Assembly: GCF_000305785.2 (NCBI RefSeq)
Contig: NC_018868.3
Location: 2,896,269-2,960,268 of the forward strand
Direction: 5' to 3'
Length of the DNA: 64,000 nt
Source of the DNA: Simiduia agarivorans SA1 = DSM 21679
Lineage (GTDB): Bacteria; Pseudomonadota; Gammaproteobacteria; Pseudomonadales; Cellvibrionaceae
The notes under the pieces: model-generated
The model's input: the letters and a program-made list of their open reading frames with translations, nothing else
Told to the model about the DNA's origin: nothing
Databases searched by the model: none
Program-made: the position numbers and the translations under genes
Shown: positions 28,965 to 44,107 of the stretch, piece after piece
Numbering within the stretch: the stretch's first letter is position 1
How the letters are laid out: every line of letters begins with the position of its first letter

Positions 28965-29020
28965 CAAATAAAGGCAAACCGACGCGCAAAATGCGCACGC
29001 GGTTGCTTTAGGCGTTATGT
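28959..29020 (+). other. attC1 (62 bp)
   Basis: Outer cores ACATAAC and GTTATGT are perfect complements. Inner arms include AAAGGCAAACC and GGTTGCTTTAGGC around GCGC-rich centres. Nearly identical to attC18. Confidence 0.93.
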
Positions 29021-29034
29021 AAAAATTGATCGAA

Positions 29035-29340
29035 ATGTTTAGTACGCTGAATAAATATGTAGGCTTAATTTGCATTCTTCTTTTGCCTGTAGTTATAGCC
29101 ATCGTCAGCATCAAAGATCCTGAGGAGCATTCAAGAGCTGGAATTGAATGGATATTTGCGCTGTTGGGTATATGGCTGCCTTTCTATTGTTTTAGATGTA
29201 TAGAAAAAGGCCACATATTTTTACCAAGTGTTAATGACATACACTTAGCGAAAGAGCCAATCGTGTTTTGGATATTTATAGCTCTACATATGGCGGTGTC
29301 ATTAGCAATTTTTAGGAATATAGTAAATGTCATTACATAA
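29035..29340 (+). CDS. Cassette 2: small membrane protein
   Basis: 101 residues with three hydrophobic stretches (YVGLICILLLPVVIAIVSI, WIFALLGIWLPFYCF, FWIFIALHMAVSLAIF). The ATG at 29035 is preferred; a TTG at 29026 is in frame. No family recognised. The gene begins 14 nt after the attC1 core and its stop overlaps attC2, as expected for a one-gene cassette. Confidence 0.7.
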   Translation: MFSTLNKYVGLICILLLPVVIAIVSIKDPEEHSRAGIEWIFALLGIWLPFYCFRCIEKGHIFLPSVNDIHLAKEPIVFWIFIALHMAVSLAIFRNIVNVIT

Positions 29341-29409
29341 CAAAGGCGGCCAATTCGCGACTGACGCCGCTGGACTCGCTTTCGCTCGCCCTTGCCGCCG
29401 GCGTTATAA
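29335..29409 (+). other. attC2 (75 bp)
   Basis: Cores ACATAAC and GTTATAA. It belongs to the 75-bp type shared with attC4, attC5, attC15 and decayed attC20 (inner AAGGCGGCCAATTCGCG and CTCGCTTTCGCTCGCCC). Confidence 0.93.
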
Positions 29410-29425
29410 ATTTTAGGACAAATAG

Positions 29426-29683
29426 ATGAGTAATATCGCAAATGCGCTTCTGGGTGTCATGGGTTGGTTAGAAATCCTTGAGGCTGAAGAGTTAGACGAA
29501 GATATGATAGTAAAAATACAAGAAGAGTTGGCATCTGCATTCGCAGAGTTCACTGAACAGGAGCGTGAGATCATGCGAGTTCAAGCTAATTCATGTCTTA
29601 AAGAATCCGTAGAGGTTAATTCTCCCCCTGATTGGATTAACTTTTATAAAAATGTTGTTTCCAACTATGGGTTGGAAGACTAA
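29426..29683 (+). CDS. Cassette 3: small acidic protein of unknown function
   Basis: 85 residues, highly acidic and helical (ILEAEELDEDMIVKIQEEL, FAEFTEQEREIMRVQ), no signal peptide or membrane segment. ATG preceded by a weak AGGACA. No family recognised. An acidic helical protein of this size could be an antitoxin, inhibitor or DNA mimic, but nothing in the sequence decides this. Confidence 0.65.
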   Translation: MSNIANALLGVMGWLEILEAEELDEDMIVKIQEELASAFAEFTEQEREIMRVQANSCLKESVEVNSPPDWINFYKNVVSNYGLED

Positions 29684-29684
29684 T

Positions 29685-29765
29685 TTATAACAAAGGCAGG
29701 CAAAGTAGGCCGCGAAAAGCGCGGCCCGGACTCGCTGTCGCTCGCCTTTGCTGCCGGCGTTAGAT
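29685..29765 (+). other. attC3 (81 bp), followed by IS copy 1
   Basis: Cores TTATAAC and GTTAGAT. Inner arms AAAGGCAGGCAAAG and CTTTGCTGCCGGCG. The first IS copy begins at 29767, 8 nt from the core G at 29759, and its 3-bp target duplication (ATT, 29764-29766) covers the last two core bases. Confidence 0.92.
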
Positions 29766-29831
29766 TTCCAAGTTACCCACGAATAGTAGACACCCTGTAT
29801 AGTTATATTAAGCCTATATGGAGGTGTCCTT

Positions 29832-30140
29832 ATGGCACGCAAAAAGCATCAGCATTACACCGAAGAATTCCGTAAAGAAGCGATAAAGCGCTCTGAACAG
29901 CCGGGTGCTACCCAAGCTTCCGTTGCGAAGGAGCTTGGGATTAGTGCCCAGCAGATCGCCAACTGGAAGCGTCAACTCACCCGCCTATCTGATAAGCAAT
30001 TCAATACCTTGGATGGTGTGGATTACTCGAAGAAAGAAAGTGAGGAGATGCGTGAACTACGGCGAGAGAATAAGCGCCTGAAAGAGGAGATGGAATTCTT
30101 AAAAAAGGTGTCTGCGTACTTCGCGAAAAACCAAGAGTGA
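29832..30140 (+). CDS. IS3-family transposase OrfA (copy 1)
   Basis: 102 residues. The N-terminal helix-turn-helix (YTEEFRKEAIKRSEQ, then ASVAKELGISAQQIANWKRQ) binds the IS ends; a leucine-zipper-like coiled coil (MRELRRENKRLKEEMEFLKK) follows. The AAAAAAG near the end allows a -1 frameshift into orfB, giving the OrfAB transposase in the usual IS3 manner. A GGAGGTGTCCTT ribosome site precedes the ATG. Confidence 0.93.
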   Translation: MARKKHQHYTEEFRKEAIKRSEQPGATQASVAKELGISAQQIANWKRQLTRLSDKQFNTLDGVDYSKKESEEMRELRRENKRLKEEMEFLKKVSAYFAKNQE

Positions 30141-31003
30141 AGTACGCATTGATTTTGGAGTATGTTGGCCAATACAGCATATCCCTGATGTGCGATGTAC
30201 TAGGCGTACATAGATCTGGCTTCTATCGCTGGTGGGATGCTCCTAAAACCAAACGTGAGGCTCGTAAGGAAGAGTTAGGCGAACTGGTGAAAGACACCTT
30301 TGAGGAGTTTGAGGCTGCCTATGGAGCCCCAAGAATCGCTCAGGAGCTGAACGACCTAGGGCATAGGTGCTCAGTCAATTTTGTAGCCAAAATCATGCAG
30401 GAACAGGGTATTTTGGCCAGAAACGGCAAAGCCTTTAACTATGGCGGCCACGCATTAACGATGCACAATGTTGCGGACAACCTCCTTTGGCGCGACTTTT
30501 CGACTGACCGGCCGAATCAAAAATGGGTCACAGATATCACGTATGTTTGGGTGAAGAATCAGTGGCTATATCTGGCAACTGTAATGGATCTGTATTCCCG
30601 TCGGATTATTGGCTGGAGCCTCGATACCGGCATGACTGAGCAGCTCATAACGCGGGCAATGCAGATGGCGATTGATGCCAGAGGTGTGGCACCAGGTCTC
30701 ATCGTCCATTCGGACCGAGGCACACAGTACCGCTCAAATAGCTACGTTGGCTTCTTGGAAAAGCACAAGATCACGCGCAGCATGAGTAGAAAGGGTAATT
30801 GTTGGGACAATGCAGTAATGGAGTCGTTCTATGCACGACTAAAGGTTGAGCTTATCTATGCCAAGAACTATCAGTCGATTGGTGAAGCTCGTTCGGGTAT
30901 ATTTGGGTACATTGAAGTCTTTTATAATCGCAAGAGAAGGCATTCAGCGAACGATGGGCTAAGTCCCGTTGATTTCGAAGAGAACGCAGCAATAGCTGCA
31001 TAA
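30137..31003 (+). CDS. IS3-family transposase OrfB, DDE integrase domain (copy 1)
   Basis: 288 residues from a GTG that overlaps the orfA stop (GTGA). An HTH_21-like region (VLGVHRSGFYRWW) precedes the rve core with the catalytic triad: D in WVTDITYVWV, D in IVHSDRGTQYRS and E in NAVMESFYARLK. The frame is open upstream to the slippery site, so the OrfAB fusion is probably the working enzyme, with OrfB also possible by coupling. Confidence 0.94.
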   Translation: MKYALILEYVGQYSISLMCDVLGVHRSGFYRWWDAPKTKREARKEELGELVKDTFEEFEAAYGAPRIAQELNDLGHRCSVNFVAKIMQEQGILARNGKAFNYGGHALTMHNVADNLLWRDFSTDRPNQKWVTDITYVWVKNQWLYLATVMDLYSRRIIGWSLDTGMTEQLITRAMQMAIDARGVAPGLIVHSDRGTQYRSNSYVGFLEKHKITRSMSRKGNCWDNAVMESFYARLKVELIYAKNYQSIGEARSGIFGYIEVFYNRKRRHSANDGLSPVDFEENAAIAA

Positions 31004-31040
31004 GTAGAGTGTCTACTTTTTGTGGGGAACACCAATTTAT

Positions 31041-31421
31041 ATGGAACTTACATACGCGATAATGTGGGCTATTTCCATGGTTCTTGGGATTTTGATTGTC
31101 CCATTGATTCTCGAGATGGTGATTAAACCTAAGAGTCAAACCAGAAAGTCAGTAATAGCCAGGGTGATTTTTTCTTCAGGGGTAATATTCCTAGTTTCTA
31201 ACGTGGCAACTTTAATATTGCTGTTGTTAGAGGCTGTTTTCGAAAAAGTGTGTAATGTCCCTGTAGCAGATGAGATACCATGTAGTGAGTGGATCTATCA
31301 TTTCGCCAGCTGGGCACAGGAATGGGCCGGTTACCCATTTCTTCTGGTCTTTTTTGGTGTTTATTTGGTTTTGATGTTTAGATTCGGAAAGAATGTTGGG
31401 TATAACAGCAAAAAAATCTAA
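31041..31421 (+). CDS. Cassette 4: membrane protein of unknown function
   Basis: 126 residues from the ATG at 31041; the longer open frame would start within the IS. Three hydrophobic segments (MWAISMVLGILIVPLILEMV, VIFLVSNVATLILLLLEAV, FLLVFFGVYLVLMF). No family recognised. IS copy 1 lies between it and attC3, leaving only a few native bases in front of the ATG, so its expression may now depend on the IS. Confidence 0.65.
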   Translation: MELTYAIMWAISMVLGILIVPLILEMVIKPKSQTRKSVIARVIFSSGVIFLVSNVATLILLLLEAVFEKVCNVPVADEIPCSEWIYHFASWAQEWAGYPFLLVFFGVYLVLMFRFGKNVGYNSKKI

Positions 31422-31490
31422 CAAGGGTGGCCAATTCGCGGCTATCGCCGCGGGACTCGCTTTCGCTCGCCCTTGCCACCGGCGTTATGT
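31416..31490 (+). other. attC4 (75 bp)
   Basis: Cores ATCTAAC and GTTATGT. The inner sequence is identical to attC5 (AAGGGTGGCCAATTCGCGGC ... GCCCTTGCCACCGGC). Confidence 0.95.
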
Positions 31491-31511
31491 GCAAATGGAT
31501 TACGCATTGCA

Positions 31512-31889
31512 ATGAAAAGGATATTGTTGGTACTGCTAGTAGTTTTTTCGCTTTCTGTTAAAGCTGAAGTGCTGTGGAAGCCGGAGGCTATTTCATATCA
31601 GTTGAAGCAAGCTCATAAAATTCTTGGGTATGGGCTTATGCTTGAGCTTAATCAAGCTTTGAATTCAGGAGAGAAAGGCTGGAGGCAGTCAAGAATCGAT
31701 GTTCCAGAAAGCTGGGTGGGTGCTTTGATAGAAATGAAGGGTGGCACGATCTATATTACGGTCGGCACAGACATCTACTACCTTAATTCAACCAATAAAG
31801 GCGAGCTTAGTTTTGCCATACTAGATGGTGGGAAAAAAACAGATGCTAACTTGCTGGAAATTTGGGCCAAATATGCAAAAAGCACATAA
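31512..31889 (+). CDS. Cassette 5: exported protein of unknown function
   Basis: 125 residues. Signal peptide MKRILLVLLVVFSLSVKAE, cleavage after KAE or nearby. The mature part contains amphipathic helices and a short beta-rich region (GGTIYITVGTDIYYL). No family recognised. The ATG at 31512 was chosen for the signal peptide; the upstream open frame crosses attC4. Confidence 0.7.
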   Translation: MKRILLVLLVVFSLSVKAEVLWKPEAISYQLKQAHKILGYGLMLELNQALNSGEKGWRQSRIDVPESWVGALIEMKGGTIYITVGTDIYYLNSTNKGELSFAILDGGKKTDANLLEIWAKYAKST

Positions 31890-31958
31890 CAAGGGTGGCC
31901 AATTCGCGGCTATCGCCGCGGGACTCGCTTTCGCTCGCCCTTGCCACCGGCGTTAGGT
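31884..31958 (+). other. attC5 (75 bp)
   Basis: Cores ACATAAC and GTTAGGT; inner arms as in attC4. The stop codon of cassette 5 lies in the 5' core. Confidence 0.95.
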
Positions 31959-31964
31959 GTTCGA

Positions 31965-32441
31965 ATGGCTAAAGATACGCCTTCGATGGCAAAGAATAAG
32001 ATCAAAAGAAGTTTGGGCGCAATTTGCGATCCCCACCCTTCTAAGAAAGAAGAAGATGCTCTTTGGATGTATTTCAATTTCCAATGTGCCTATTGCGGTA
32101 TTCTGATTGAAAGAGCATCGAGAACCGGCCATCTTGATCATCTTATTCCTGCTTCTGAAGGCGGAACCAATAGCATCTATAACCATGCTCTTTCGTGTGC
32201 AAAGTGCAATGGCGATGAGAAGCGGGAGGGAGAGTGGGATTCCTTTTTAAAAGTAAAGGCATTATCGAACGAGATTTACGAAATAAGGAAGAATAAGATC
32301 GAAGCGTGGTTAAAGAAATCTCCCAAAGTCTTAAACGATCCTGACTTCATTGCAATGCGGGATAGGATCATAAATAAAGCCATCGCTGATTTTGATGTCG
32401 CCGTCTCGAAAATGAGGGAGCTAAGAAATAAATGCACCTAA
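31965..32441 (+). CDS. Cassette 6: HNH endonuclease
   Basis: 158 residues. A treble-clef HNH motif is clear: Cys41-x2-Cys44 (CAYCG), Asp58-His59 (LDHLIPASEGG), Asn73-His74 and Cys78-x2-Cys81 (SCAKCN), then basic residues. Such nucleases occur in phage defence, mobile elements and repair; no recognition domain is visible. A Lys-rich N-terminus may bind DNA. The gene starts 7 nt after the attC5 core and ends in attC6. A defence role is an inference from context. Confidence 0.85.
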   Translation: MAKDTPSMAKNKIKRSLGAICDPHPSKKEEDALWMYFNFQCAYCGILIERASRTGHLDHLIPASEGGTNSIYNHALSCAKCNGDEKREGEWDSFLKVKALSNEIYEIRKNKIEAWLKKSPKVLNDPDFIAMRDRIINKAIADFDVAVSKMRELRNKCT

Positions 32442-32529
32442 CAAGGCCAGCCAACAACGGCAGCGCAAAAGACGCGCTGCCTCGACTCGCTGCGCGTTGC
32501 TTCGCTCGCGGTTGCTGGCGGCGTTATAC
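32436..32529 (+). other. attC6 (94 bp)
   Basis: Cores ACCTAAC and GTTATAC. Inner arms AAGGCCAGCCAACAACGG and TTGCTGGCGGC around GC-rich centres. Same type as attC9. Confidence 0.93.
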
Positions 32530-32558
32530 GATAAAGGAAGAATGAGCTCTGGAGCGTC

Positions 32559-32870
32559 ATGAAGTTTATTAAGGGAAAGGAATTTAAGTCGGATCGGCCT
32601 TGGGGTTCTGAATTAATTGCATCAATGAACGGGATTTCAACCAAAATCCATTGGACTGATGAACCATACAAATGGCACGTCAATGATGGGGAGGAAGTGT
32701 TTGTAGTCCTTCATGGTTCAGTAGAGATGCGCTACAAAAGTGAGTCCGAAGAGCTATCCAAAATCATGGAGTCAGGAGACATATTTTTTGCGTCCATAGG
32801 CACAGAACATGTGGCTCACCCAATAGGCGAGGCCAGAATACTGGTAATAGAAACTGAAGGCAGCGTATAA
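32559..32870 (+). CDS. Cassette 7: cupin-domain protein
   Basis: 103 residues, a single cupin_2 beta-barrel: WHVNDGEEVFVVLHGSVEMR (motif 1 with His and Glu ligands) and GDIFFASIGTEHVAHPIG (motif 2 with His). It is a small cytoplasmic metal-binding fold with enzymatic or ligand-binding roles; the substrate is unknown. No signal peptide. Confidence 0.85.
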   Translation: MKFIKGKEFKSDRPWGSELIASMNGISTKIHWTDEPYKWHVNDGEEVFVVLHGSVEMRYKSESEELSKIMESGDIFFASIGTEHVAHPIGEARILVIETEGSV

Positions 32871-32950
32871 CAAGTGTATTTTGTACGCCGCTAAAAGCGC
32901 GGCGGGACGGCTCCGCTGTCGCTCCGCCGCCCCAAATACAGGTGTTAACT
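32865..32950 (+). other. attC7 (86 bp)
   Basis: Cores GTATAAC and GTTAACT. Inner arms AAGTGTATTTTGTACGCCGC and GCCCCAAATACAGG. Nearly identical to attC19 and related to attC11 and attC16. The 3' half reads GGTGTTA rather than the usual GGCGTTA. Confidence 0.92.
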
Positions 32951-32961
32951 GTCTCGACTGA

Positions 32962-33870
32962 ATGATGAAGATTACTCAGATAACAAGAAGAGATCTCTTT
33001 GATGCGATTATCATCGAGAGAATAGACTGGGCAGGATCACTTGAAGAGCCTGAGTTTTTGGCTCGCTTGTATAATCTTCAAGAGATCGAATCAACGGATC
33101 AGAGGTTTCCAGATGCGGCCGGTGATATTTGGCAGCATAGAGTTAGAAACTATGACTGGGATGAGTATTGGGTTTTTAATGATTCTCGATTCCAACTTAT
33201 GAATGGAGATGACGAAATATTGCTTCGTTTTCTGGCGGAGACCGTTCATCCTATTGTTCGGTCAGATGCAACAGAATCGCAACGTTTGGTTCAGCTATAT
33301 AATAAGTTTTTACGAAATGATGGATTTGAACTGGCAGAAAAAACTCGTATTTCCGGAAAGCCAATTTACATAGGAAGAAATGTAGGTACCGTCTCACTGC
33401 CTGGAATGTCGTCTGCAAAAGAAGTTCTTAGCGGCACAGACTTAGTTTATGTTGCTCAACAGATTACTCGTATGGAAGCGGCGGTTAATAACGATCCTAG
33501 TTTAGCTATTGGAACAGCAAAAGAATTAATAGAAAGCTGTTGTAAAACTATTCTCGCAGAAAGAGGAGTTGCAGTAGGAAGCTCTGATGATGTGCCTAAG
33601 CTTGTAAAGGCAACAGTAAAGGAGCTAAAGCTAACGCCAAGTGACATTCCTGACGAAGCTAAAGCGGCTGATTCGATTAGAAAGCTTTTGAGTAATTTGG
33701 CTTCGGTAGCAAGCGGCATTGCAGAATTGAGAAACAAATACGGTACAGGTCATGGTAAAGAAGGTAGTACCAAAGGATTGAGTTCGCGTCATGCGAAGCT
33801 AGCTGTTGGAGCAGCGTCAACGCTGGCGGTCTTTCTAGTTGAAACTCACCGTGTACAGAATGACAGTTAA
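32962..33870 (+). CDS. Cassette 8: abortive-infection family protein (Abi C-terminal domain)
   Basis: 302 residues. The C-terminal part (about 150-295) fits the Abi C-terminus family: AIGTAKELIESCCKTILAER, VPKLVKATVKELKL, LSNLASVASGIAELRNKYGT and SSRHAKLAVGAASTLAVFL. The N-terminal 130 residues (RRDLFDAIIIERIDWAG..., DIWQHRVRNYDWDEYWVF) resemble AbiJ-type N-terminal regions. Proteins of this class act in phage defence through growth arrest or cell death. ATG at 32962 or 32965. It stands alone in its cassette, without a partner toxin or antitoxin gene. Confidence 0.8.
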   Translation: MMKITQITRRDLFDAIIIERIDWAGSLEEPEFLARLYNLQEIESTDQRFPDAAGDIWQHRVRNYDWDEYWVFNDSRFQLMNGDDEILLRFLAETVHPIVRSDATESQRLVQLYNKFLRNDGFELAEKTRISGKPIYIGRNVGTVSLPGMSSAKEVLSGTDLVYVAQQITRMEAAVNNDPSLAIGTAKELIESCCKTILAERGVAVGSSDDVPKLVKATVKELKLTPSDIPDEAKAADSIRKLLSNLASVASGIAELRNKYGTGHGKEGSTKGLSSRHAKLAVGAASTLAVFLVETHRVQNDS

Positions 33871-33921
33871 CAAACGCAAGCATCCGACTCGCTACGCTCC
33901 CGGCTGTTGCGGGCGTTATGC
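33865..33921 (+). other. attC8 (57 bp)
   Basis: Cores AGTTAAC and GTTATGC. Short form with inner CAAACGCAAGCATCCGACTC and GGCTGTTGCGGGC, identical inside to attC14. Confidence 0.94.
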
Positions 33922-33933
33922 ATAAGGCTGGAT

Positions 33934-34341
33934 ATGCTGAATAAGAAAGTACTTATTGTCGTATTTATTCTATTGCCATGTCTTGGGTTGACGATCTTGC
34001 CTATCTGCGCCATTGCTAGCGGCTACTTTATGCCAAGTCAGGAGCATTTGCTCAGAGCGAGAGACCGTTTGCCTGTTGGGAACATACTGCAAATAGGGTT
34101 TTCCTCTGGAAGTGTGAAATGCGATGGAGAGAAGTGCGATTACAGACAAAGCTTTGATCAAAAACAATACATAAGCACCGGAGATCCGGCTAAAGTTGTT
34201 AGCATTAAGAAAGGATATGATGGTGTTTGGTCCATATCGGAGTCCCGCTTAACTTTAGCTTCCGGCCTTTCTCTCTTGGCTCTTTATATGATTGTATTCG
34301 CAGGGCTCACGTACTCGGTAAGAAGTCTTAAAAATGCATAA
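33934..34341 (+). CDS. Cassette 9: membrane protein of unknown function
   Basis: 135 residues from the ATG at 33934. An N-terminal helix (VLIVVFILLPCLGLTILPICAI, cited in part) and a C-terminal helix (LSLLALYMIVFAGLTYSV) flank a soluble region of about 75 residues with two close cysteines (VKCDGEKCDY), probably periplasmic. No family recognised. Confidence 0.65.
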   Translation: MLNKKVLIVVFILLPCLGLTILPICAIASGYFMPSQEHLLRARDRLPVGNILQIGFSSGSVKCDGEKCDYRQSFDQKQYISTGDPAKVVSIKKGYDGVWSISESRLTLASGLSLLALYMIVFAGLTYSVRSLKNA

Positions 34342-34432
34342 CAAGGCCAGCCAACAACGGCAGCGCAAAAAAAAGCGCGCTGCCTCGACTCACTCCGCGT
34401 TGCTCCGTTCGCGGCTGCTGGCGGCGTTATAC
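34336..34432 (+). other. attC9 (97 bp), followed by IS copy 2
   Basis: Cores GCATAAC and GTTATAC. Same type as attC6, with a longer A-rich centre. IS copy 2 begins at 34434, 8 nt from the core G at 34426. Confidence 0.92.
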
Positions 34433-34498
34433 GTCCAAGTTACCCACGAATAGTAGACACCCTGTATAGTTATATTAAGCCTATATGGAGGTGTCCTT

Positions 34499-34807
34499 AT
34501 GGCACGCAAAAAGCATCAGCATTACACCGAAGAATTCCGTAAAGAAGCGATAAAGCGCTCTGAACAGCCGGGTGCTACCCAAGCTTCCGTTGCGAAGGAG
34601 CTTGGGATTAGTGCCCAGCAGATCGCCAACTGGAAGCGTCAACTCACCCGCCTATCTGATAAGCAATTCAATACCTTGGATGGTGTGGATTACTCGAAGA
34701 AAGAAAGTGAGGAGATGCGTGAACTACGGCGAGAGAATAAGCGCCTGAAAGAGGAGATGGAATTCTTAAAAAAGGTGTCTGCGTACTTCGCGAAAAACCA
34801 AGAGTGA
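34499..34807 (+). CDS. IS3-family transposase OrfA (copy 2)
   Basis: 102 residues, identical to OrfA of copy 1, with the same helix-turn-helix, coiled coil and AAAAAAG frameshift site (34768-34774). Confidence 0.93.
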   Translation: MARKKHQHYTEEFRKEAIKRSEQPGATQASVAKELGISAQQIANWKRQLTRLSDKQFNTLDGVDYSKKESEEMRELRRENKRLKEEMEFLKKVSAYFAKNQE

Positions 34808-35670
34808 AGTACGCATTGATTTTGGAGTATGTTGGCCAATACAGCATATCCCTGATGTGCGATGTACTAGGCGTACATAGATCTGGCTTCTATCGCTGGT
34901 GGGATGCTCCTAAAACCAAACGTGAGGCTCGTAAGGAAGAGTTAGGCGAACTGGTGAAAGACACCTTTGAGGAGTTTGAGGCTGCCTATGGAGCCCCAAG
35001 AATCGCTCAGGAGCTGAACGACCTAGGGCATAGGTGCTCAGTCAATTTTGTAGCCAAAATCATGCAGGAACAGGGTATTTTGGCCAGAAACGGCAAAGCC
35101 TTTAACTATGGCGGCCACGCATTAACGATGCACAATGTTGCGGACAACCTCCTTTGGCGCGACTTTTCGACTGACCGGCCGAATCAAAAATGGGTCACAG
35201 ATATCACGTATGTTTGGGTGAAGAATCAGTGGCTATATCTGGCAACTGTAATGGATCTGTATTCCCGTCGGATTATTGGCTGGAGCCTCGATACCGGCAT
35301 GACTGAGCAGCTCATAACGCGGGCAATGCAGATGGCGATTGATGCCAGAGGTGTGGCACCAGGTCTCATCGTCCATTCGGACCGAGGCACACAGTACCGC
35401 TCAAATAGCTACGTTGGCTTCTTGGAAAAGCACAAGATCACGCGCAGCATGAGTAGAAAGGGTAATTGTTGGGACAATGCAGTAATGGAGTCGTTCTATG
35501 CACGACTAAAGGTTGAGCTTATCTATGCCAAGAACTATCAGTCGATTGGTGAAGCTCGTTCGGGTATATTTGGGTACATTGAAGTCTTTTATAATCGCAA
35601 GAGAAGGCATTCAGCGAACGATGGGCTAAGTCCCGTTGATTTCGAAGAGAACGCAGCAATAGCTGCATAA
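34804..35670 (+). CDS. IS3-family transposase OrfB (copy 2)
   Basis: 288 residues, identical to OrfB of copy 1, with the complete DDE triad. The GTG start overlaps the orfA stop. Confidence 0.94.
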   Translation: MKYALILEYVGQYSISLMCDVLGVHRSGFYRWWDAPKTKREARKEELGELVKDTFEEFEAAYGAPRIAQELNDLGHRCSVNFVAKIMQEQGILARNGKAFNYGGHALTMHNVADNLLWRDFSTDRPNQKWVTDITYVWVKNQWLYLATVMDLYSRRIIGWSLDTGMTEQLITRAMQMAIDARGVAPGLIVHSDRGTQYRSNSYVGFLEKHKITRSMSRKGNCWDNAVMESFYARLKVELIYAKNYQSIGEARSGIFGYIEVFYNRKRRHSANDGLSPVDFEENAAIAA

Positions 35671-35713
35671 GTAGAGTGTCTACTTTTTGTGGGGAACACC
35701 AACGTGAAGTGAA

Positions 35714-36082
35714 ATGAAACATATTTGCCCAAATTGTGGTTCCAAATTTAGTGCTCAAGAAGCGCTCTGCGAAGATTGGAGAAATCCAAAAAGAAGTCTT
35801 GGGTGCCCCAACTGCAAAGTATGGTTAAAGCACGCTGACCATAGAGCAGAGCTAAAAAGGAATTTCTGGTTCTTGTTGGTAATTGCAATCGTGATAACTG
35901 TAAATGCTCTTATAAAAGAGTTGGAAACAGATTGGCTTAGTTATGGATATGCCATTGTGATTGCTATCTCCATTGTTGCTTTCATATTGATTAATTATAG
36001 GCTTAATGGTAACAGCCAATTAGTTAAACCTAAATGGAAGCAGTCTCCTTTAGAGATTGTCGATGATGATGAAAACGTATAA
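35714..36082 (+). CDS. Cassette 10: zinc-ribbon membrane protein
   Basis: 122 residues. An N-terminal zinc ribbon (CPNCGSKFSAQEALC, then GCPNCKVWL) is followed by two membrane helices (FWFLLVIAIVITVNALI and AIVIAISIVAFILINY) and an acidic tail. Family not recognised. It lies 12 nt after the end of IS copy 2. Confidence 0.72.
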   Translation: MKHICPNCGSKFSAQEALCEDWRNPKRSLGCPNCKVWLKHADHRAELKRNFWFLLVIAIVITVNALIKELETDWLSYGYAIVIAISIVAFILINYRLNGNSQLVKPKWKQSPLEIVDDDENV

Positions 36083-36148
36083 CAAACGCAAACAAACTGG
36101 CCTATCGGCCTCGACTCGCTACGCTCGCGTTTGTTGCGGGCGTTATGC
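36077..36148 (+). other. attC10 (72 bp)
   Basis: Cores GTATAAC and GTTATGC. Inner CAAACGCAAACAAACTGGCC and CGCGTTTGTTGCGGGC. Confidence 0.92.
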
Positions 36149-36165
36149 GTAAACAAGAAGGATCT

Positions 36166-36471
36166 ATGTGGAAAACAATCGGGACACTTTTTCTGTTTAT
36201 ATTATTTTTTGTTTCTGGTTACTTAGTCGCATCTTGGAATTTCGTGTACGGAACAACATACGTACTAACTGAATCAATCGTTCTTGAAAGTGGACAGGCC
36301 GTAGGTGAACTCCCGGCCGGCACTGAATTGCATTATCAGTCCATGGCGCATGGTGAAATAGATTATTACGTGTTTGTACGCATGCCCCTGAAGAAATCTA
36401 TGGAAATTAGGAAAAAGGTCGAGGTAGATACCTATAACGGAATAAAGAGGTTAAAAGGTGGCTTTGAGTAA
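36166..36471 (+). CDS. Cassette 11: small protein with one N-terminal membrane helix
   Basis: 101 residues from the ATG at 36166, which has AAGAAGG upstream. An in-frame ATG at 36145 lies inside the attC10 core and is less likely. One helix (IGTLFLFILFFVSGYLVASW) precedes a soluble beta-rich domain (ELPAGTELHYQSMAHGEIDYY). No family recognised. Confidence 0.68.
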   Translation: MWKTIGTLFLFILFFVSGYLVASWNFVYGTTYVLTESIVLESGQAVGELPAGTELHYQSMAHGEIDYYVFVRMPLKKSMEIRKKVEVDTYNGIKRLKGGFE

Positions 36472-36474
36472 TCC

Positions 36475-36564
36475 GCATAACAAGTGGCTATTGGTGGCCG
36501 CACAAAATACGTGCGGCGGGACGGCTACGCTGTCGCTCCGCCGCCCCAAAGCCAGGCGTTACAA
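36475..36564 (+). other. attC11 (90 bp)
   Basis: Cores GCATAAC and GTTACAA. Inner arms share GCGGGACGGCTACGCTGTCG with the attC7/16/19 type. Confidence 0.92.
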
Positions 36565-36581
36565 GTCTTAGGTATTGAGCA

Positions 36582-36998
36582 ATGATCGAAATTGAATTCG
36601 AAGAACCAAAATTAGAAGTATGTGAATGTTGTGGTAATACGACCACTCGATTAACTCGCTTCGTATACCAAGATGGCGATGCTTTCGCTGTTTACTATGT
36701 TTTATTCACTGACGGCCATGAGGATAAAGTTGCATACTCCTTAATAGGTTTGGGTGAGTGGGGTGAAGGTGGTGAGCCAGAAATGCGTACCGCCTTCGCT
36801 GTGAAAATCTGGGACAACAATGACAATTGGGCAGTAACCGTCACAGATAAAGAAGAATCACCTTGGAGTCATGTAGAGTTCCTAGGGAAAATTGTTAACC
36901 GCGAAGAGGCGCTACAGCACCCTTGGATCAAGGACGTTTACCATATTACTGATCATATCGTTGCTGAAGATAAGCCAGTAATAGAGTTCTTCGCATGA
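36582..36998 (+). CDS. Cassette 12: soluble protein with CxCCG motif, unknown function
   Basis: 138 residues, acidic, no signal peptide. The N-terminus has a Cys-rich turn (EVCECCGNTTTRLTRF) that may bind a metal, followed by a beta-rich domain (AFAVYYVLFTDGHEDK, AVKIWDNNDNWAVTVTD). I do not recognise a named family. The gene stops a few bases before attC12. Confidence 0.65.
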   Translation: MIEIEFEEPKLEVCECCGNTTTRLTRFVYQDGDAFAVYYVLFTDGHEDKVAYSLIGLGEWGEGGEPEMRTAFAVKIWDNNDNWAVTVTDKEESPWSHVEFLGKIVNREEALQHPWIKDVYHITDHIVAEDKPVIEFFA

Positions 36999-37004
36999 CC
37001 CAAC

Positions 37005-37104
37005 TTGTAACAAGCGGCTGCACCGGACAAATTTCCGCTGTCACCTTTTTTGCGTGGCAAAAAAGCCGCCATCAAAAATTTGCTCGGTGAGCCGGGCGTT
37101 ATAT
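37005..37104 (+). other. attC12 (100 bp)
   Basis: Cores TTGTAAC and GTTATAT. The longest attC seen here, with a large inner arm (CACCTTTTTTGCGTGGC paired with GCCACGCAAAAAA-like bases). A singleton type in this window. Confidence 0.88.
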
Positions 37105-37127
37105 GCTGATCGTAGATGAGATCTTAA

Positions 37128-37421
37128 ATGATATTTGCAGAACTAGATTATCCTGAAAGTTATGAAAATATTCATGATGAGCTGGTTAATTTTATCAGCT
37201 TAGAGTTTAGCAATGTACAGTCAGGGCTTCAGGGTGATTCATGGATATGGATTTTCAGTGAAAGTGAAAAGGTGGTCATCGACACATTCCTATCTATGAA
37301 GCATGAAATCAAATCTGACCATCTCAATTCAAGGTTGGTGATCGAAGTAATTAACCATTTGAAAAAAAGGTTTGTGGTTAATGTGTATGGCACTCCGGAG
37401 CCAGAGCCTCATGAAGAATAG
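37128..37421 (+). CDS. Cassette 13: small soluble protein of unknown function
   Basis: 97 residues, acidic, with alternating helices and strands (YENIHDELVNFISLEFSNVQ, WIWIFSESEKVVIDTF, RFVVNVYGTPEPEPHEE). No signal peptide or metal motif. Family not recognised. Confidence 0.65.
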   Translation: MIFAELDYPESYENIHDELVNFISLEFSNVQSGLQGDSWIWIFSESEKVVIDTFLSMKHEIKSDHLNSRLVIEVINHLKKRFVVNVYGTPEPEPHEE

Positions 37422-37427
37422 ATGTGC

Positions 37428-37490
37428 ATATAACAAGCAAAAGCAAGCCGACGCGCAGAAACGCGCGCGCGGCTGTTTTGGGCGTTAGGC
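37428..37490 (+). other. attC13 (63 bp)
   Basis: Cores ATATAAC and GTTAGGC. Inner AAAGCAAGCCGACGCGC and GCGCGCGGCTGTTTTGGGC. Confidence 0.92.
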
Positions 37491-37495
37491 AAATC

Positions 37496-37816
37496 ATGAA
37501 ATTTCAAGGTGCAAATATTCATCTACAAAAGATGGCTACTAAGACTTTGTGTCAATTTTGCATTGATCACGGTATGAAGGAATCTCCAAGCGTCATTAGT
37601 ATAAAGGAGTGTCTTGAATGCTTGGAGCGAGGAGATCTTGAGTTGGCGTACTATGCGTATAAGACAGTCCCTCTGGGTGGAAACAATTGCTTCAATGACC
37701 GTTTTGTCAAGGCGTCGTACCCTCATGAAAGTGACAGTTACGCGAATGGTGTGTTTCATGCGTTAATATATTATTGGTGGAATACTATGAATGGATCGGT
37801 AGTAAAAAATGCCTAA
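37496..37816 (+). CDS. Cassette 14: small soluble protein of unknown function
   Basis: 106 residues from the ATG at 37496; the upstream open frame only translates attC13. Helical with several Cys residues (LCQFCIDHGMKE, IKECLECLERGDLELAYYAY) and an aromatic C-terminus (FHALIYYWWNTMNG). No family recognised. Confidence 0.65.
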   Translation: MKFQGANIHLQKMATKTLCQFCIDHGMKESPSVISIKECLECLERGDLELAYYAYKTVPLGGNNCFNDRFVKASYPHESDSYANGVFHALIYYWWNTMNGSVVKNA

Positions 37817-37867
37817 CAAACGCAAGCATCCGACTCGCTACGCTCCCGGCTGTTGCGGGCGTTAAAA
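37811..37867 (+). other. attC14 (57 bp)
   Basis: Cores GCCTAAC and GTTAAAA. The inner sequence is identical to attC8. Confidence 0.94.
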
Positions 37868-37880
37868 CTCAGGAGTATCG

Positions 37881-38465
37881 ATGGAACCGATTACCTTAAC
37901 TGCATCATTTGCAACAGTTGTTAGCTTGCTAGGCACTTATAAAGCTGAAAGTCGTGTGATTGAGGGAGATGAGTTTAAAGATTTCATGCAATGGCTGATT
38001 GAAACAAATCATATTGAAATTAAAAATTTATTAGAAGTTAACACTAAAGCAACTATCGGGATAAAGGCCTTGTTAAACCAAGATAGAGAGCTGTTGTTTC
38101 AAAAGCTTGGGGCCATTGATGAATTGCTCAGTCTTATTGCTAGTCGAGTAGATGGATTTAGCGAAGTAAGTAATGCGATTCACCCTAATAGCGAAATTTC
38201 AGAGCAAGCTGTTTCTATCCTTAGGCAGTTTGTTGAGTCTGAGGGAAGTAAGTTTCTAAAGTCTGAAGCTATGAATCGCGGTCCGGTTTTTCTAATAATA
38301 GGGGGAAAAGGTGGTCAAATTGACTACACCGAACCCCAGTTCATCGATGACGATTTGAACACGCTAGTTGGTATCGGGTTGCTTGCACAAGATTACAATA
38401 GCAAAGGACAGCCCTTATATGGGATTACAAGAGCTGCGGTTAAGTTCCTTGCCACACTGCAATAA
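37881..38465 (+). CDS. Cassette 15: helical protein with possible C-terminal winged helix
   Basis: 194 residues. The N-terminus MEPITLTASFATVVSLLGTY is an amphipathic or weakly hydrophobic helix, followed by long helices (IEIKNLLEVNTKATIGIKAL, FQKLGAIDELLSLIASRVDG). A C-terminal segment (LNTLVGIGLLAQDYNSKGQP, then LYGITRAAVKFLATLQ) looks like a winged-helix or similar small domain. Function unknown. N-termini of this sort occur in bacterial NTPase effectors, but no NTPase domain is present. Confidence 0.65.
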   Translation: MEPITLTASFATVVSLLGTYKAESRVIEGDEFKDFMQWLIETNHIEIKNLLEVNTKATIGIKALLNQDRELLFQKLGAIDELLSLIASRVDGFSEVSNAIHPNSEISEQAVSILRQFVESEGSKFLKSEAMNRGPVFLIIGGKGGQIDYTEPQFIDDDLNTLVGIGLLAQDYNSKGQPLYGITRAAVKFLATLQ

Positions 38466-38567
38466 ATGTTTTAACAAGGGTGGCCAATTCGCGGCTGTCG
38501 CCGCGGGACTCTAGACTTGCACCACTTTGACGGACAGTAAATTACTGTCAGTCAAAAGAGGTGTGTT

Positions 38568-38933
38568 ATGGGAATAACAAAGAAGAAACACTACGACAGC
38601 TACACATTGGCCTTTAAGGTCAAAGCGGTCAGAGAAAGTAAAAAACGAGGCGTTAAGGCCATAGATGTGGCGAACGCGCTTGGTATTCATCCGGTTATGT
38701 TGTATAGATGGCGACAGGAGTATAAGGAAGGTCGCCTATCGGAGAACAAGCATATGAAGGTGCCGGAGCCCCCACCTAAAAAATCTCGCGAAGACAGCGA
38801 CAAGCTTAAAGTGGCCGAGAGGCGCATTAAGGAGCTTGAGAAACGCTTGGCGGCTAAGGAAGAAGAGGTCGTCATTTTAAAAAAGGCAAAGCGGTTCTTC
38901 TTGGAACAGCGCAAGAAAGATATGCGTTCATAG
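38568..38933 (+). CDS. IS3-family transposase OrfA (second element)
   Basis: 121 residues. Helix-turn-helix (YTLAFKVKAVRESKKRGVK, then DVANALGIHPVMLYRWRQEY), a basic linker and a coiled coil (KVAERRIKELEKRLAAKEEE). The AAAAAAG near the end would shift ribosomes into the orfB frame. Confidence 0.93.
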   Translation: MGITKKKHYDSYTLAFKVKAVRESKKRGVKAIDVANALGIHPVMLYRWRQEYKEGRLSENKHMKVPEPPPKKSREDSDKLKVAERRIKELEKRLAAKEEEVVILKKAKRFFLEQRKKDMRS

Positions 38934-38959
38934 AGGAGAACCGCGACGTTCATAAAGTC

Positions 38960-39757
38960 GTGACGATGTGTGAACACCTTGATGTTTCGACCAGTGGTTA
39001 CTATGACTGGCGCGAGAGGAAGCCGAGTGAGCGAGCCCAGTACGACGCTATCCTGGTGAGCCAGATATGTCGCATGCATGTTGGCCACCAAAAAAACTAT
39101 GGCGCGATACGGGTGCACCCTTACTTAAGGGCGCGCGATTACGCCTGTAGTCGGCGCCGGATCAATCGCTTGATGAAGGCACATGGCATACGCTCTATTT
39201 ATCATGCTCAGCGTCCGCGTCGTTACAAAGGAGCAAATGCTCCAGTATCGGATAACATATTGGCTGCTCGACCAAAAGCTGCGCAAGTAGGCGAAAGCTG
39301 GGCTGGAGACATGACCTATCTGAAGACGGCGGAAGGGGAGCTGTATATGGCTGCGGTCTTGGATCTCTACAATCGCAAGGTCGTTGGCTGGGGCTTTTCC
39401 TCAGCCCATAATAGTGATCTGGTTGAGGGCGCACTACAGATGGCGCTGGCGATGGAGGAGCGGCTTCCAGGTTGCATCTTCCACAGCGACCAAGGCTCAG
39501 AATATCGATCGGATGAGTATCGCAGGCTGCTTCAAGATTCAGATATGGTGAGCAGCATGAGCAGGGCTGGAGTGCCTACAGACAATGCGTACGTAGAATC
39601 GTTCTTTAAAACGTTGAAAAATGAGCTGGTTCATCATTGGAAATTCAAAAGCAAGATAGAATGCGTTGCCCGAGTTGTTGATTACGTTGGGTTTTATAAT
39701 AATAACCGCTTACACTCGGGTTTAGATTATGCAACACCAAATTCATATCAAGGGTGA
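38960..39757 (+). CDS. IS3-family transposase OrfB, DDE domain (second element)
   Basis: 265 residues from the first ATG; the frame is open further upstream to the slippery site and encodes the typical ERYAFIEENR segment, so the natural product is an OrfAB fusion. The catalytic triad is seen in SWAGDMTYLKT, IFHSDQGSEYRS and NAYVESFFKTLK. It appears intact, so the element may be active. Confidence 0.94.
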   Translation: MTMCEHLDVSTSGYYDWRERKPSERAQYDAILVSQICRMHVGHQKNYGAIRVHPYLRARDYACSRRRINRLMKAHGIRSIYHAQRPRRYKGANAPVSDNILAARPKAAQVGESWAGDMTYLKTAEGELYMAAVLDLYNRKVVGWGFSSAHNSDLVEGALQMALAMEERLPGCIFHSDQGSEYRSDEYRRLLQDSDMVSSMSRAGVPTDNAYVESFFKTLKNELVHHWKFKSKIECVARVVDYVGFYNNNRLHSGLDYATPNSYQG

Positions 39758-39892
39758 ATCAATAGGTGTCCGTGAAAGTGGTGCAAGTCCACTCGCTTTC
39801 GCTCGCCCTTGCCACCGGCGTTAAATTCCCAAGTTACCCACGAATAGTAGACACCCTGTATAGTTATATTAAGCCTATATGGAGGTGTCCTT

Positions 39893-40201
39893 ATGGCACG
39901 CAAAAAGCATCAGCATTACACCGAAGAATTCCGTAAAGAAGCGATAAAGCGCTCTGAACAGCCGGGTGCTACCCAAGCTTCCGTTGCGAAGGAGCTTGGG
40001 ATTAGTGCCCAGCAGATCGCCAACTGGAAGCGTCAACTCACCCGCCTATCTGATAAGCAATTCAATACCTTGGATGGTGTGGATTACTCGAAGAAAGAAA
40101 GTGAGGAGATGCGTGAACTACGGCGAGAGAATAAGCGCCTGAAAGAGGAGATGGAATTCTTAAAAAAGGTGTCTGCGTACTTCGCGAAAAACCAAGAGTG
40201 A
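39893..40201 (+). CDS. IS3-family transposase OrfA (copy 3)
   Basis: 102 residues, identical to OrfA of copies 1 and 2, including the AAAAAAG frameshift site (40162-40168). Confidence 0.93.
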   Translation: MARKKHQHYTEEFRKEAIKRSEQPGATQASVAKELGISAQQIANWKRQLTRLSDKQFNTLDGVDYSKKESEEMRELRRENKRLKEEMEFLKKVSAYFAKNQE

Positions 40202-41064
40202 AGTACGCATTGATTTTGGAGTATGTTGGCCAATACAGCATATCCCTGATGTGCGATGTACTAGGCGTACATAGATCTGGCTTCTATCGCTGGTGGGATG
40301 CTCCTAAAACCAAACGTGAGGCTCGTAAGGAAGAGTTAGGCGAACTGGTGAAAGACACCTTTGAGGAGTTTGAGGCTGCCTATGGAGCCCCAAGAATCGC
40401 TCAGGAGCTGAACGACCTAGGGCATAGGTGCTCAGTCAATTTTGTAGCCAAAATCATGCAGGAACAGGGTATTTTGGCCAGAAACGGCAAAGCCTTTAAC
40501 TATGGCGGCCACGCATTAACGATGCACAATGTTGCGGACAACCTCCTTTGGCGCGACTTTTCGACTGACCGGCCGAATCAAAAATGGGTCACAGATATCA
40601 CGTATGTTTGGGTGAAGAATCAGTGGCTATATCTGGCAACTGTAATGGATCTGTATTCCCGTCGGATTATTGGCTGGAGCCTCGATACCGGCATGACTGA
40701 GCAGCTCATAACGCGGGCAATGCAGATGGCGATTGATGCCAGAGGTGTGGCACCAGGTCTCATCGTCCATTCGGACCGAGGCACACAGTACCGCTCAAAT
40801 AGCTACGTTGGCTTCTTGGAAAAGCACAAGATCACGCGCAGCATGAGTAGAAAGGGTAATTGTTGGGACAATGCAGTAATGGAGTCGTTCTATGCACGAC
40901 TAAAGGTTGAGCTTATCTATGCCAAGAACTATCAGTCGATTGGTGAAGCTCGTTCGGGTATATTTGGGTACATTGAAGTCTTTTATAATCGCAAGAGAAG
41001 GCATTCAGCGAACGATGGGCTAAGTCCCGTTGATTTCGAAGAGAACGCAGCAATAGCTGCATAA
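40198..41064 (+). CDS. IS3-family transposase OrfB (copy 3)
   Basis: 288 residues, identical to OrfB of copies 1 and 2, with the complete DDE triad; the GTG start overlaps orfA. Confidence 0.94.
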   Translation: MKYALILEYVGQYSISLMCDVLGVHRSGFYRWWDAPKTKREARKEELGELVKDTFEEFEAAYGAPRIAQELNDLGHRCSVNFVAKIMQEQGILARNGKAFNYGGHALTMHNVADNLLWRDFSTDRPNQKWVTDITYVWVKNQWLYLATVMDLYSRRIIGWSLDTGMTEQLITRAMQMAIDARGVAPGLIVHSDRGTQYRSNSYVGFLEKHKITRSMSRKGNCWDNAVMESFYARLKVELIYAKNYQSIGEARSGIFGYIEVFYNRKRRHSANDGLSPVDFEENAAIAA

Positions 41065-41110
41065 GTAGAGTGTCTACTTTTTGTGGGGAACACCAGTTTA
41101 AAGGAGAGCT

Positions 41111-41953
41111 ATGAGTTTACTGATGAATATCTCTTTTGATTGTGAGTGCGGTGAGCATGTAAATGAAATAGTGTACGTACAACCCCCAGACTTCTCTGCT
41201 GAAAAGACCAAAGACAGTCAGACAGATTCTTGGCAAGAAGTGTACTGCCCTTCGTGTGATAAGGAATACACCATACAGGTTACAAATACATTTTATGGAG
41301 CTATGGCATCTACTGACTCCGGTAACATTGATATAAATTATGGAAACCCATATTACCCAGGGGATGATCAGGACGAGCTAAATTGGGTTATAGAAAGCCA
41401 GAATCAGATAGATATTTTCAAAGCTCAGATATCCAGTGTGGAAAGACTTCTATCAATTGAGATTGAGGGTGATGCAAAATTTAGCATGCAGGTCATGCTG
41501 TATGGGCATGTGGTTGCTGCAGTTGAGGCGTATTTATCTTCTACTTTTATTCATAATGTAACCAATTCAGATCGCCTAATACGCAAGCTTGTTGAAACTG
41601 ATCCGACATTTTCAAAGCGCACATTTACGTTAAAAGAAATATTTGAAAAGAGGGAGTCAATTAAGCTTACAGTTGCCAACTACCTCAAAGACATAATCTT
41701 TCATGACTTGAAGAAGATAAAGCCAATGTATCGAGATGTATTCGAATACGATTTTGGTGACATATCTTGGCTGTTTCAGGCTGTGCTAGTCAGACATCAT
41801 TGTGTCCATCGTGCTGGGTACGATAAAGATGGTAATAAAATTGAAGTATCGGATGAGGTTCTTAGGGATTTAGTTTTCAAATCGGTTGAGTTAGTAGAGG
41901 CTTTAGAAGTTCGGGCAAAAGAAATTGAATTTGATAACGAGTTACCGTTTTAA
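41111..41953 (+). CDS. Cassette 16: zinc-ribbon plus HEPN-like protein
   Basis: 280 residues. The N-terminus has two Cys pairs (CECG near residue 11 and CPSC near 47), a probable zinc ribbon. The C-terminal half is all-helical and holds Arg228-x4-His233 (RHHCVH) followed by RAGYDKDG, matching the RX4-6H active-site pattern of HEPN ribonucleases. HEPN proteins are RNases in toxin-antitoxin and phage-defence systems. The ATG follows AAAGGAGAG at good spacing. No antitoxin gene shares the cassette. The HEPN call rests on the motif and local helix context. Confidence 0.6.
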   Translation: MSLLMNISFDCECGEHVNEIVYVQPPDFSAEKTKDSQTDSWQEVYCPSCDKEYTIQVTNTFYGAMASTDSGNIDINYGNPYYPGDDQDELNWVIESQNQIDIFKAQISSVERLLSIEIEGDAKFSMQVMLYGHVVAAVEAYLSSTFIHNVTNSDRLIRKLVETDPTFSKRTFTLKEIFEKRESIKLTVANYLKDIIFHDLKKIKPMYRDVFEYDFGDISWLFQAVLVRHHCVHRAGYDKDGNKIEVSDEVLRDLVFKSVELVEALEVRAKEIEFDNELPF

Positions 41954-42043: not shown

Positions 42044-42050
42044 AAATACC

Positions 42051-42617: not shown

Positions 42618-42627
42618 GCAATAAGAG

Positions 42628-43086: not shown

Positions 43087-43092
43087 TTTTCG

Positions 43093-43619: not shown

Positions 43620-43621
43620 GA

Positions 43622-44097: not shown

Positions 44098-44107
44098 CAG
44101 GATTAAA

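What the first reader, a model, noticed from the sequence alone, without database searches (positions are those of the whole stretch)
29759..41095. An IS3-family element inserted three times at the same position beside attC cores
Three identical 1268-bp copies (29767, 34434, 39828) each start exactly 8 nt downstream of the G of the attC 3' core GTTRRRY (G at 29759, 34426 and 39820), in the same orientation. The adjacent attC sites are of three different types (81, 97 and 75 bp). Copies 1 and 2 have different 3-bp duplications (ATT, ACG), so they are independent insertions. Site-directed insertion at attC is known for IS1111-attC elements of the IS110 family, which use a different transposase. 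Precise attC-relative targeting by a DDE IS3-family element would be unusual and perhaps undescribed. The folded attC or a shared local sequence could guide it.
Basis: partly seen in the sequence, partly recalled or inferred. Interest (0 to 1): 0.88.

Follow-up and report, generated by a model that had tools for sequence, protein, structure and literature searches.

The report
Jumping genes that aim at integrons
A lineage of ordinary-looking bacterial jumping genes (IS3 family) inserts itself at one exact nucleotide position beside the recombination sites of integron gene cassettes, so it spreads through these gene-swapping arrays without breaking the site and may travel with the cassettes.

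Summary
The element (1267 bp; 29768-31034 and two identical copies) has 7 near-complete copies and 1 fragment in the host chromosome; all 8 begin 9 nt after the G of an attC 3' core. An element-only end pattern found 133 places in 56 of 144 related genomes; with one plasmid copy, 113 of 134 left ends have GTT at exactly that offset. Of 65 elements with both ends read, 60 face the core with the left end, 3 are clearly reversed, 1 is ambiguous, 1 fits neither; 32 have a 4-bp duplication. Relatives in Vibrio, Marinobacter, Rheinheimera and others follow the rule; 37 resolved relatives at 39-47% identity do not. On a quick tree the trait needs one change. Recognition is partly linear: about 13 of 116 sites, by eye, lack an attC, most keeping GGCGTTA, one inside a gene. 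Yet sites without GGC are mostly attCs, so attC context also seems to count. A second, distant IS3-family element here enters attC, usually 28 nt before the same core. I found no description of IS3-family attC targeting in the papers searched.

The parts
29768..31034 (+). IS-A copy 1 (IS3 family, 1267 bp)
34435..35701 (+). IS-A copy 2
39829..41095 (+). IS-A copy 3
29768..29794 (+). left inverted repeat of copy 1 (CCAAGTTACCCACGAATAGTAGACACC)
31008..31034 (-). right inverted repeat of copy 1
29764..29767 (+). 4-bp target duplication ATTT, left (right copy 31035-31038)
34431..34434 (+). 4-bp target duplication ACGT, left (right copy 35702-35705)
29832..30140 (+). orfA of copy 1 (HTH_Tnp_1); same in copies 2 (34499-34807) and 3 (39893-40201)
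30137..31003 (+). orfB of copy 1 (rve, DD(35)E transposase); same in copies 2 (34804-35670) and 3 (40198-41064)
30101..30107 (+). AAAAAAG heptamer, read A AAA AAG in the orfA frame; predicted -1 frameshift site joining orfA to orfB
29685..29765 (+). attC next to copy 1; 3' core GTTAGAT at 29759-29765
   Evidence: boundaries by my reading
34336..34432 (+). attC next to copy 2; 3' core G at 34426
   Evidence: boundaries by my reading
38468..39826 (+). attC next to copy 3, split by IS-B; arms about 38468-38511 and 39792-39826; 3' core G at 39820
   Evidence: boundaries by my reading
38512..39791 (+). IS-B, second IS3-family element, inside the attC; 3-bp duplication CTC (38509-38511 and 39792-39794), 28 nt before the core G
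38568..38933 (+). IS-B orfA
38960..39757 (+). IS-B orfB (31% identical to IS-A OrfB)
28950..45300 (+). cassette array holding the elements (approximate limits, by my reading)

Best explanation
A clade of IS3-family insertion sequences has a transposase that targets the 3' (R') end of integron attC sites. SHOWN by comparison: insertion with a 4-bp staggered cut that starts 5 nt into the core (product: attC-GTTRR-NNNN-IS-NNNN-next cassette); the left end almost always faces the attC; the rule is shared by the clade and absent from the nearest resolved relatives outside it. FOLLOWS from the position: the 7-bp core of the upstream attC is kept, and the IS becomes the first part of the downstream cassette, so IntI recombination at the flanking attCs should carry the IS along. 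INFERRED: the usual IS3 route (OrfAB by -1 frameshift, circle intermediate, paste-in), with the target read as GGCGTTR in double-stranded DNA helped by a further attC feature, most likely the foldable hairpin.
For: Own genome: 8 of 8 copies at the offset. Family genomes, by an element-only pattern: 56 of 144 hit, 1 hit of the reversed control pattern; GTT at the offset in 108 of 129 distinct left ends (128 of the 133 places plus plasmid copy L011) and in the 5 places first left out: 113 of 134. Both ends read: of 65, 60 forward, 3 clearly reverse, 1 ambiguous, 1 neither; all 32 duplications are 4 bp; the 65 hold 51 different OrfB readings, so not all are independent. Other collections: of 30 rows of 50% identity or more entered, 21 had a recognised left end, 20 at offset 9 and 1 (L276) at offset 10 with a 5-bp match; 4 of the 21 repeat loci already counted. 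Plasmids: 3 of 4 fetched could be read, all 3 fit. Of 37 resolved relatives at 39-47%, 6 have a GTTR within 16 nt, at offsets 2 to 16 but none at 9. Tree: the 54 attC rows lie in one clade with SH-aLRT 100, with 4 unresolved rows, and need one change when unresolved rows are not counted. attC context: GGCGTTAT occurs 270 times in the own genome, against 220 for the reversed control, so only about 50 belong to attCs; of 19 occupied sites without GGC, 12 pass the automatic attC test, and by eye 11 are clear attCs and 2 clearly not, although GTTA occurs 4181 times per Mb against 153 for GGCGTTA.
Against: 33 of 65 elements have no perfect duplication; recombination between copies and adjacent deletions are known causes (PMC11708052, abstract), but I did not show them here. 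About 13 of 116 sites have no recognisable attC, so the hairpin is not essential. Occupied and empty attCs do not differ clearly near the core, so no determinant could be isolated. The automatic attC test accepts only 84 of 116 sites; the rest was judged by eye. L120, an element at the offset whose OrfB is only 29% identical over 253 aa and has stops, was left out of the tree and may not belong to the clade.
Confidence: 0.82

Rival explanations
1. Linear-motif model: the transposase reads only double-stranded GGCGTTA and near matches, and selection removes most insertions outside the tolerant cassette arrays, leaving an apparent attC preference.
For: Non-attC sites exist with the motif and perfect duplications: L085 inside a 246-codon ORF, and L101, L114, L123. 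One insertion with a perfect duplication (L068) sits on the GCGTTG of an inverted attC's other core (my reading). GGC before GTT is about equally common in occupied sites and empty attCs, 97 of 116 against 67 of 85. If only intergenic copies survived (12% assumed, from memory), 8 of 8 own copies at attCs would still have a chance of about 0.035.
Against: Across the 116 sites about 11% are non-attC, where the same rough reckoning gives about a third. Sites without GGC should lie almost always outside attCs, yet by eye 11 of 19 are clear attCs and 12 of 19 pass the automatic test.
Confidence: 0.3
2. Tethering model: the integron integrase bound to attC, or another integron-associated protein, recruits the transposition complex.
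For: 50 of 56 genomes with the element have intI over the cut-off, against 61 of the other 88 in the family.
Against: G035 and G089, single-contig genomes rated 100% complete, show no intI match at E <= 1e-60 but carry attC insertions with perfect duplications (L019, L098); intI could have been lost later. Non-attC insertions also argue against a strict need.
Confidence: 0.08
3. Safe-harbour model: cassette arrays tolerate insertions, and the shared offset reflects the short gap between attC and the next gene.
For: Many insertions lie between an attC and the next ORF.
Against: One offset to the base, one predominant orientation, conservation across genera, absence from relatives at 39-47%. Tolerance alone gives no exact distance.
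Confidence: 0.02
4. The three copies arose by segmental duplication, or as one cassette copied around.
For: Five own copies are identical or nearly so. In G158 two copies of the other element, IS-B, do share both flanks (L306, L307).
Against: For IS-A: different flanks, different attC types, different 4-bp duplications.
Confidence: 0.01

Closest known systems
IS1111-attC elements (ISKpn4, ISPst6; IS1111/IS110 families)
   Same: [quoted passage not shown] Tetu and Holmes 2008 and Post and Hall 2009 seen only as citations).
   Different: DEDD transposase guided by a seekRNA; here a DD(35)E IS3 transposase with orfA/orfB and a 4-bp duplication. Whether an RNA guide exists here was not tested.
IS1397, ISKpn1, ISPsy8 (IS3 family, REP-targeting)
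   Same: IS3-family elements inserting into a short palindromic repeat; experiments cited there point to the transposase as the determinant for IS1397 and ISKpn1 (PMC1525189, passages seen).
   Different: Target is REP, not attC. Sequence kinship to this clade was not tested.
Group IIC-attC introns
   Same: Mobile elements that insert at attC, using a hairpin plus a short core motif (PMC7923331, passages seen).
   Different: Retroelement inserting into the bottom strand at the R'' core (TTGT/T), opposite to cassette transcription; here a DNA element at the R' end, mostly co-directional.
IS3-family copies in Vibrio cassette arrays (V. cholerae, V. parahaemolyticus)
   Same: IS3-family elements in or near cassette arrays (PMC11023631, PMC1382264, passages seen).
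   Different: One V. cholerae copy is described as lying in a cassette coding sequence; no attC targeting is described in the passages seen.

Membership tests
IS3 family | Transposase matches the IS3 model (NF033516) | tested here: met
   orfB 337.9 bits, cut-off 160; orfA alone matches the N-terminal part at 51.5 bits
IS3 family | DD(35)E catalytic triad | tested here: met
   D133, D193, E229 invariant in 16 aligned members, 35 residues between the last two
IS3 family | orfA/orfB with -1 frameshift signal | tested here: met
   4-bp overlap; A AAA AAG heptamer in frame; the joined reading runs into orfB; frameshifting itself not tested
IS3 family | Imperfect inverted repeats and a short (3-5 bp) duplication | tested here: met
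   4 bp in 32 of 65, none in 33
IS3 family | Circle intermediate | not testable with these tools
   needs experiment
IS1111-attC group | DEDD transposase of IS110/IS1111 type | tested here: not met
   rve and HTH_21 domains; no IS110-type match listed
IS1111-attC group | Insertion at a fixed place at one end of attC | tested here: met
   works like it, is not a member
IS1397-type REP-targeting IS3 elements | Insertion into REP/palindromic units | tested here: not met
   sites are mostly attC, otherwise mostly GGCGTTA; no REP search was run
IS1397-type REP-targeting IS3 elements | Sequence kinship of the transposase | not tested
   no IS1397 sequence was fetched
Group IIC-attC introns | Ribozyme and reverse transcriptase | tested here: not met
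   the element codes only for OrfA and OrfB

The most novel reading that the evidence does not exclude
Two separate IS3-family lineages (IS-A and IS-B) have become specialists of integron attC sites and read the folded attC (cruciform or single-stranded hairpin) rather than sequence alone: IS-A cuts just outside the hairpin base, IS-B 28 nt inside on the 3' arm, each at a fixed distance from the same core across attCs of unlike sequence. DDE transposases would thus use DNA secondary structure as a target code, and the elements would travel as passengers of gene cassettes.
Probability: 0.35. Interest if true: 0.85.

Novelty: new variant of a known kind. Interest (0 to 1): 0.7.

Why it matters
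attC targeting was known for IS1111-type elements and group IIC introns. A DDE transposase clade with base-exact attC targeting is a third, unrelated solution to the same target, and comparing them could show what in attC is recognisable. Because the insertion keeps the attC core and becomes part of the downstream cassette, it predicts IS copies that ride on cassettes and repeated homologous stretches that rearrange arrays. It also offers a natural site-specific DDE system whose specificity can be dissected by comparing the clade with its non-targeting relatives.

Tried and rejected
Hairpin scoring: a first fold test and a stem test separated sites poorly, because attC L stems are 5 bp and the control pool itself contained attCs. 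A stricter rule (YAAC-N3-L5...L5'-N3-GTT: score of 4 or more in 72 of 116 sites against 15 of 406 background CGTTA sites) was used instead, with fold z-scores added (84 of 116). The other 32 I judged by eye, giving about 99 attC-like (some split by IS-B, halved or short), 13 not, 4 unclear (L055, L090, L102, L167); two that pass the rule (L099, and L024 with a weak fold) I class as not attC and probable.

First empty-attC comparison mixed both orientations of the palindrome and was discarded; searches use one orientation. One search shows no strong extra preference in 72 occupied against 99 empty attCs (smallest p 0.005 at -12, 21 positions, uncorrected).

Exceptions among the 134 left ends (21, all): 3 are reverse insertions at the same site (L147, L151, L152); L126 (GTAA) and L103 (GGTA) have a one-base change at the right offset; L062 and L071 have GTT at -10; L035 unclear; L072 is a decayed element; the second end in L099 lies inside another copy; L016, L046, L050, L075, L077, L095, L096, L100, L116, L133, L162 had no right end found, several near contig ends.

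Rows left out. Of 136 left ends, 65 had both ends read; most others lacked an orfB match of 100 aa, and L058 and L070 had no recognised right end. Of 89 loci (one search is a capped list, best 80 of 581) I entered 76; the 13 not entered are L250, L253, L265, L269, L270, L272, L274, L278, L280-L284, of which L272, L274, L283 and L284 are partial relatives above 50%. Of the 30 entered rows of 50% or more, 9 had no recognised left end (one, L208, is the already counted L101). Of 46 below 50%, 9 were not resolved. In the tree, readings with stops or under 230 aa were left out.

TSD loss by recombination between copies: own flanks allow only one weak match (L006 left, L003 right, both GTGT); inconclusive. 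Alteromonas plasmid L012 (50%) has a similar right end but no readable left end and is not counted. Class-wide search with a looser, exact pattern: 5 of 368 other genomes hit (6 of 369 with the own); 2 of those 5 have the offset (L166, L167). Structure prediction was not tried.

Literature: ten searches, passages of nine papers (PMC12444791, PMC11187229, PMC11023631, PMC1525189, PMC1382264, PMC10011109, PMC7923331, PMC11089894, PMC9345347) and the abstract of a tenth (PMC11708052). Tetu and Holmes 2008 (PMC2447020) and PMC169884 are not held; ISfinder was not available. PMC11089894 (passage) reports that IS3-family transposases made up 23% of cassette-associated transposases in the phyllosphere, and names the IS1111 group as attC-targeting.

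Full report
WHAT IS THERE. The window holds a cassette array (about 28.95-45.3 kb) with three identical 1267-bp copies of an IS3-family element, called IS-A here. Each has orfA (102 aa) and orfB (288 aa, rve domain), an A AAA AAG heptamer that would join them by a -1 frameshift, and imperfect terminal repeats. The host is probably a Simiduia species (Cellvibrionaceae): the same-genus genome G002 has a contig of 3964050 bp, the contig length given for Simiduia sp. 21SJ11W-1. The chromosome has two intI genes over the cut-off.

OBSERVATION. The copies start 9 nt after the G of the attC 3' core (G at 29759, 34426, 39820), in one orientation. Copies 1 and 2 have 4-bp duplications, ATTT and ACGT; copy 3 has none. 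In the genome there are 7 near-complete copies (5 practically identical, 2 at 98% that are some 20 bp longer and whose OrfB match is interrupted) and one left-end fragment; all 8 keep the offset.

GENERALITY. A pattern taken only from the element's left end hit 133 places in 56 of 144 genomes of the family, with one hit for the reversed control pattern (133 is my count of its list). With 128 of these places and one plasmid copy, 129 distinct left ends were read; 108 have GTT at exactly the offset, where chance gives about 1 in 64. The remaining five places were read later and all five fit: 113 of 134. With both ends located in 65 elements: 60 have the core before the left end; in 3 (all in G158) the right end faces the core at the same place; L103 has GGTAG at the right place and was scored reverse by the rule; L072 fits neither. 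Duplications are 4 bp in 32 and absent in 33. The 65 contain 51 different OrfB readings, so not all are independent.

OTHER TAXA. A scan of one genome per species kept the best 80 of 581 relatives, and a viral-contig scan gave 9; I entered 76 of these 89. Of 30 rows of at least 50% identity, 21 had a left end that the script recognised: 20 at offset 9 and L276 at offset 10, the latter with a 5-bp rather than 4-bp match between its flanks; 9 were unresolved, although one, L208, is the already counted L101. New taxa include Vibrio aquaticus, V. diabolicus, V. rotiferianus, V. pacinii, Marinobacter salarius, Haliea salexigens, Rheinheimera oceanensis, Reinekea blandensis, Marinobacterium lutimaris, Pseudoalteromonas and two Thiotrichaceae bins. 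Three of four plasmid copies fetched could be read (Vibrio alginolyticus, V. campbellii, Pseudoalteromonas) and fit. Identity alone does not draw the line: family members down to 49% also fit. Of 46 rows below 50%, 37 were resolved (39-47%); 6 have a GTTR within 16 nt of the left end, at offsets from 2 to 16, none at 9.

TREE. A quick maximum-likelihood tree of 96 transposases, without bootstrap, puts all 54 rows labelled attC, with 4 unresolved ones, in one clade (SH-aLRT 100); the trait needs one change when unresolved rows are not counted. The label means the core at the offset: L085, L101 and L114, which lie at non-attC sites, carry it too. L120, at the offset but with an OrfB of 29% identity and stops, was left out and could be a member of another lineage.

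WHAT IS RECOGNISED. Among 116 sites with the core at the offset (112 forward, 4 reverse by rule; the five are not included), 97 have GGC before GTT. The automatic test for attC passes 84; by eye about 99 are attC-like, 13 are not, 4 unclear. The non-attC sites are informative. L085 has a perfect TCAT duplication inside a 246-codon ORF; L101, L114 and L123 also have perfect duplications and no visible attC; all four carry GGCGTTA. So linear sequence can suffice. But GGCGTTA is common: 153 per Mb in 320 kb of sampled DNA away from the known copies, with GTTA at 4181 per Mb. The genome holds 270 GGCGTTAT against 220 for the reversed control, so about 50 belong to arrays. Under the motif alone, about a fifth of insertions should be at attCs. 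Restricting to intergenic DNA (12% assumed, from memory) raises this to about two thirds, still below what is seen, though for the own genome alone the difference is modest (about 0.035 for 8 of 8). More telling, of 19 sites without GGC, 12 pass the automatic test; by eye 11 are clear attCs, one (L024) is probable, one (L068) lies on the other core of an inverted attC, 2 are clearly not attC and 4 are unclear, although non-GGC GTTA sites in ordinary DNA outnumber those in attCs by orders of magnitude. Later mutation of the spacer could account for some; L083 and L104 have perfect duplications and are probably recent. Something else in attC therefore seems to help, and the hairpin is the obvious candidate, but this is inference.

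CONSEQUENCE. With GTTRR before the cut and the 4 bp duplicated, the upstream attC keeps its whole core, and the IS lies at the start of the next cassette. That cassette excision would carry it is expected from how integrons work, not shown. intI is present in 50 of 56 genomes with the element and 61 of the other 88. G035 and G089, rated complete, lack a match but carry insertions with perfect duplications, so a need for IntI is unlikely, though later loss is possible.

SECOND ELEMENT. IS-B (38512-39791) is another IS3-family element, OrfB 31% identical to IS-A. Its 4 own copies lie in the attC interior by the flanks that could be read; one is truncated. Among copies of it and of its 58-69% relatives, the distance from the insertion to the core G is 28 in L041, L043, L289, L293, L297, L298 and L308, 29 in L302 and 40 in L042, where the arm seems to hold a short repeat. 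Duplications where seen are 3 bp; L298 has none. L306 and L307 in G158, 121 kb apart, have the same flanks as each other and as L289 (the same copy as L306), so one may have moved with its cassette or by duplication. L299 is decayed; L291, L294 and L044 lack one end; the more distant L309 (48%) sits in an inverted repeat that I could not class, and L300 (49%) could not be resolved.

LIMITS. The attC classification is partly by eye; half the elements lack duplications; orientation bias could be biochemical or selected. No experiment was possible. Absence from print rests on ten searches of an open-access library; subscription papers and ISfinder were not searched.

Noticed in passing
window 38512-39791; L041-L044, L289, L293, L297, L298, L302, L308: A second IS3-family element (IS-B) inserts inside attC sites, usually exactly 28 nt before the core G, mostly with 3-bp duplications; two own attCs carry both IS-A and IS-B.
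   Followed up: partly
L147, L151, L152 (G158): Three IS-A relatives are inserted at the same attC position in reverse orientation; 7 other copies in that genome are forward.
   Followed up: partly
65 elements: About half the elements have no matching target duplication although their left flank is exactly placed; cause not established.
   Followed up: partly
L068: One insertion with a perfect GCGT duplication sits, by my reading, at the other core (R'') of an inverted attC.
   Followed up: no
L306 and L307 (G158, 121 kb apart): Two IS-B copies share both flanks, as if an attC already carrying the IS had moved or been duplicated with its surroundings.
   Followed up: no
window 44020-44095: A decayed attC-like stretch near the end of the array, resembling the type at about 31420-31490 but with a changed core.
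   Followed up: no
L309 (Candidatus Tenderia electrophaga plasmid): A distant IS-B relative sits in the middle of an inverted repeat that might be a degenerate attC or another palindrome.
   Followed up: no
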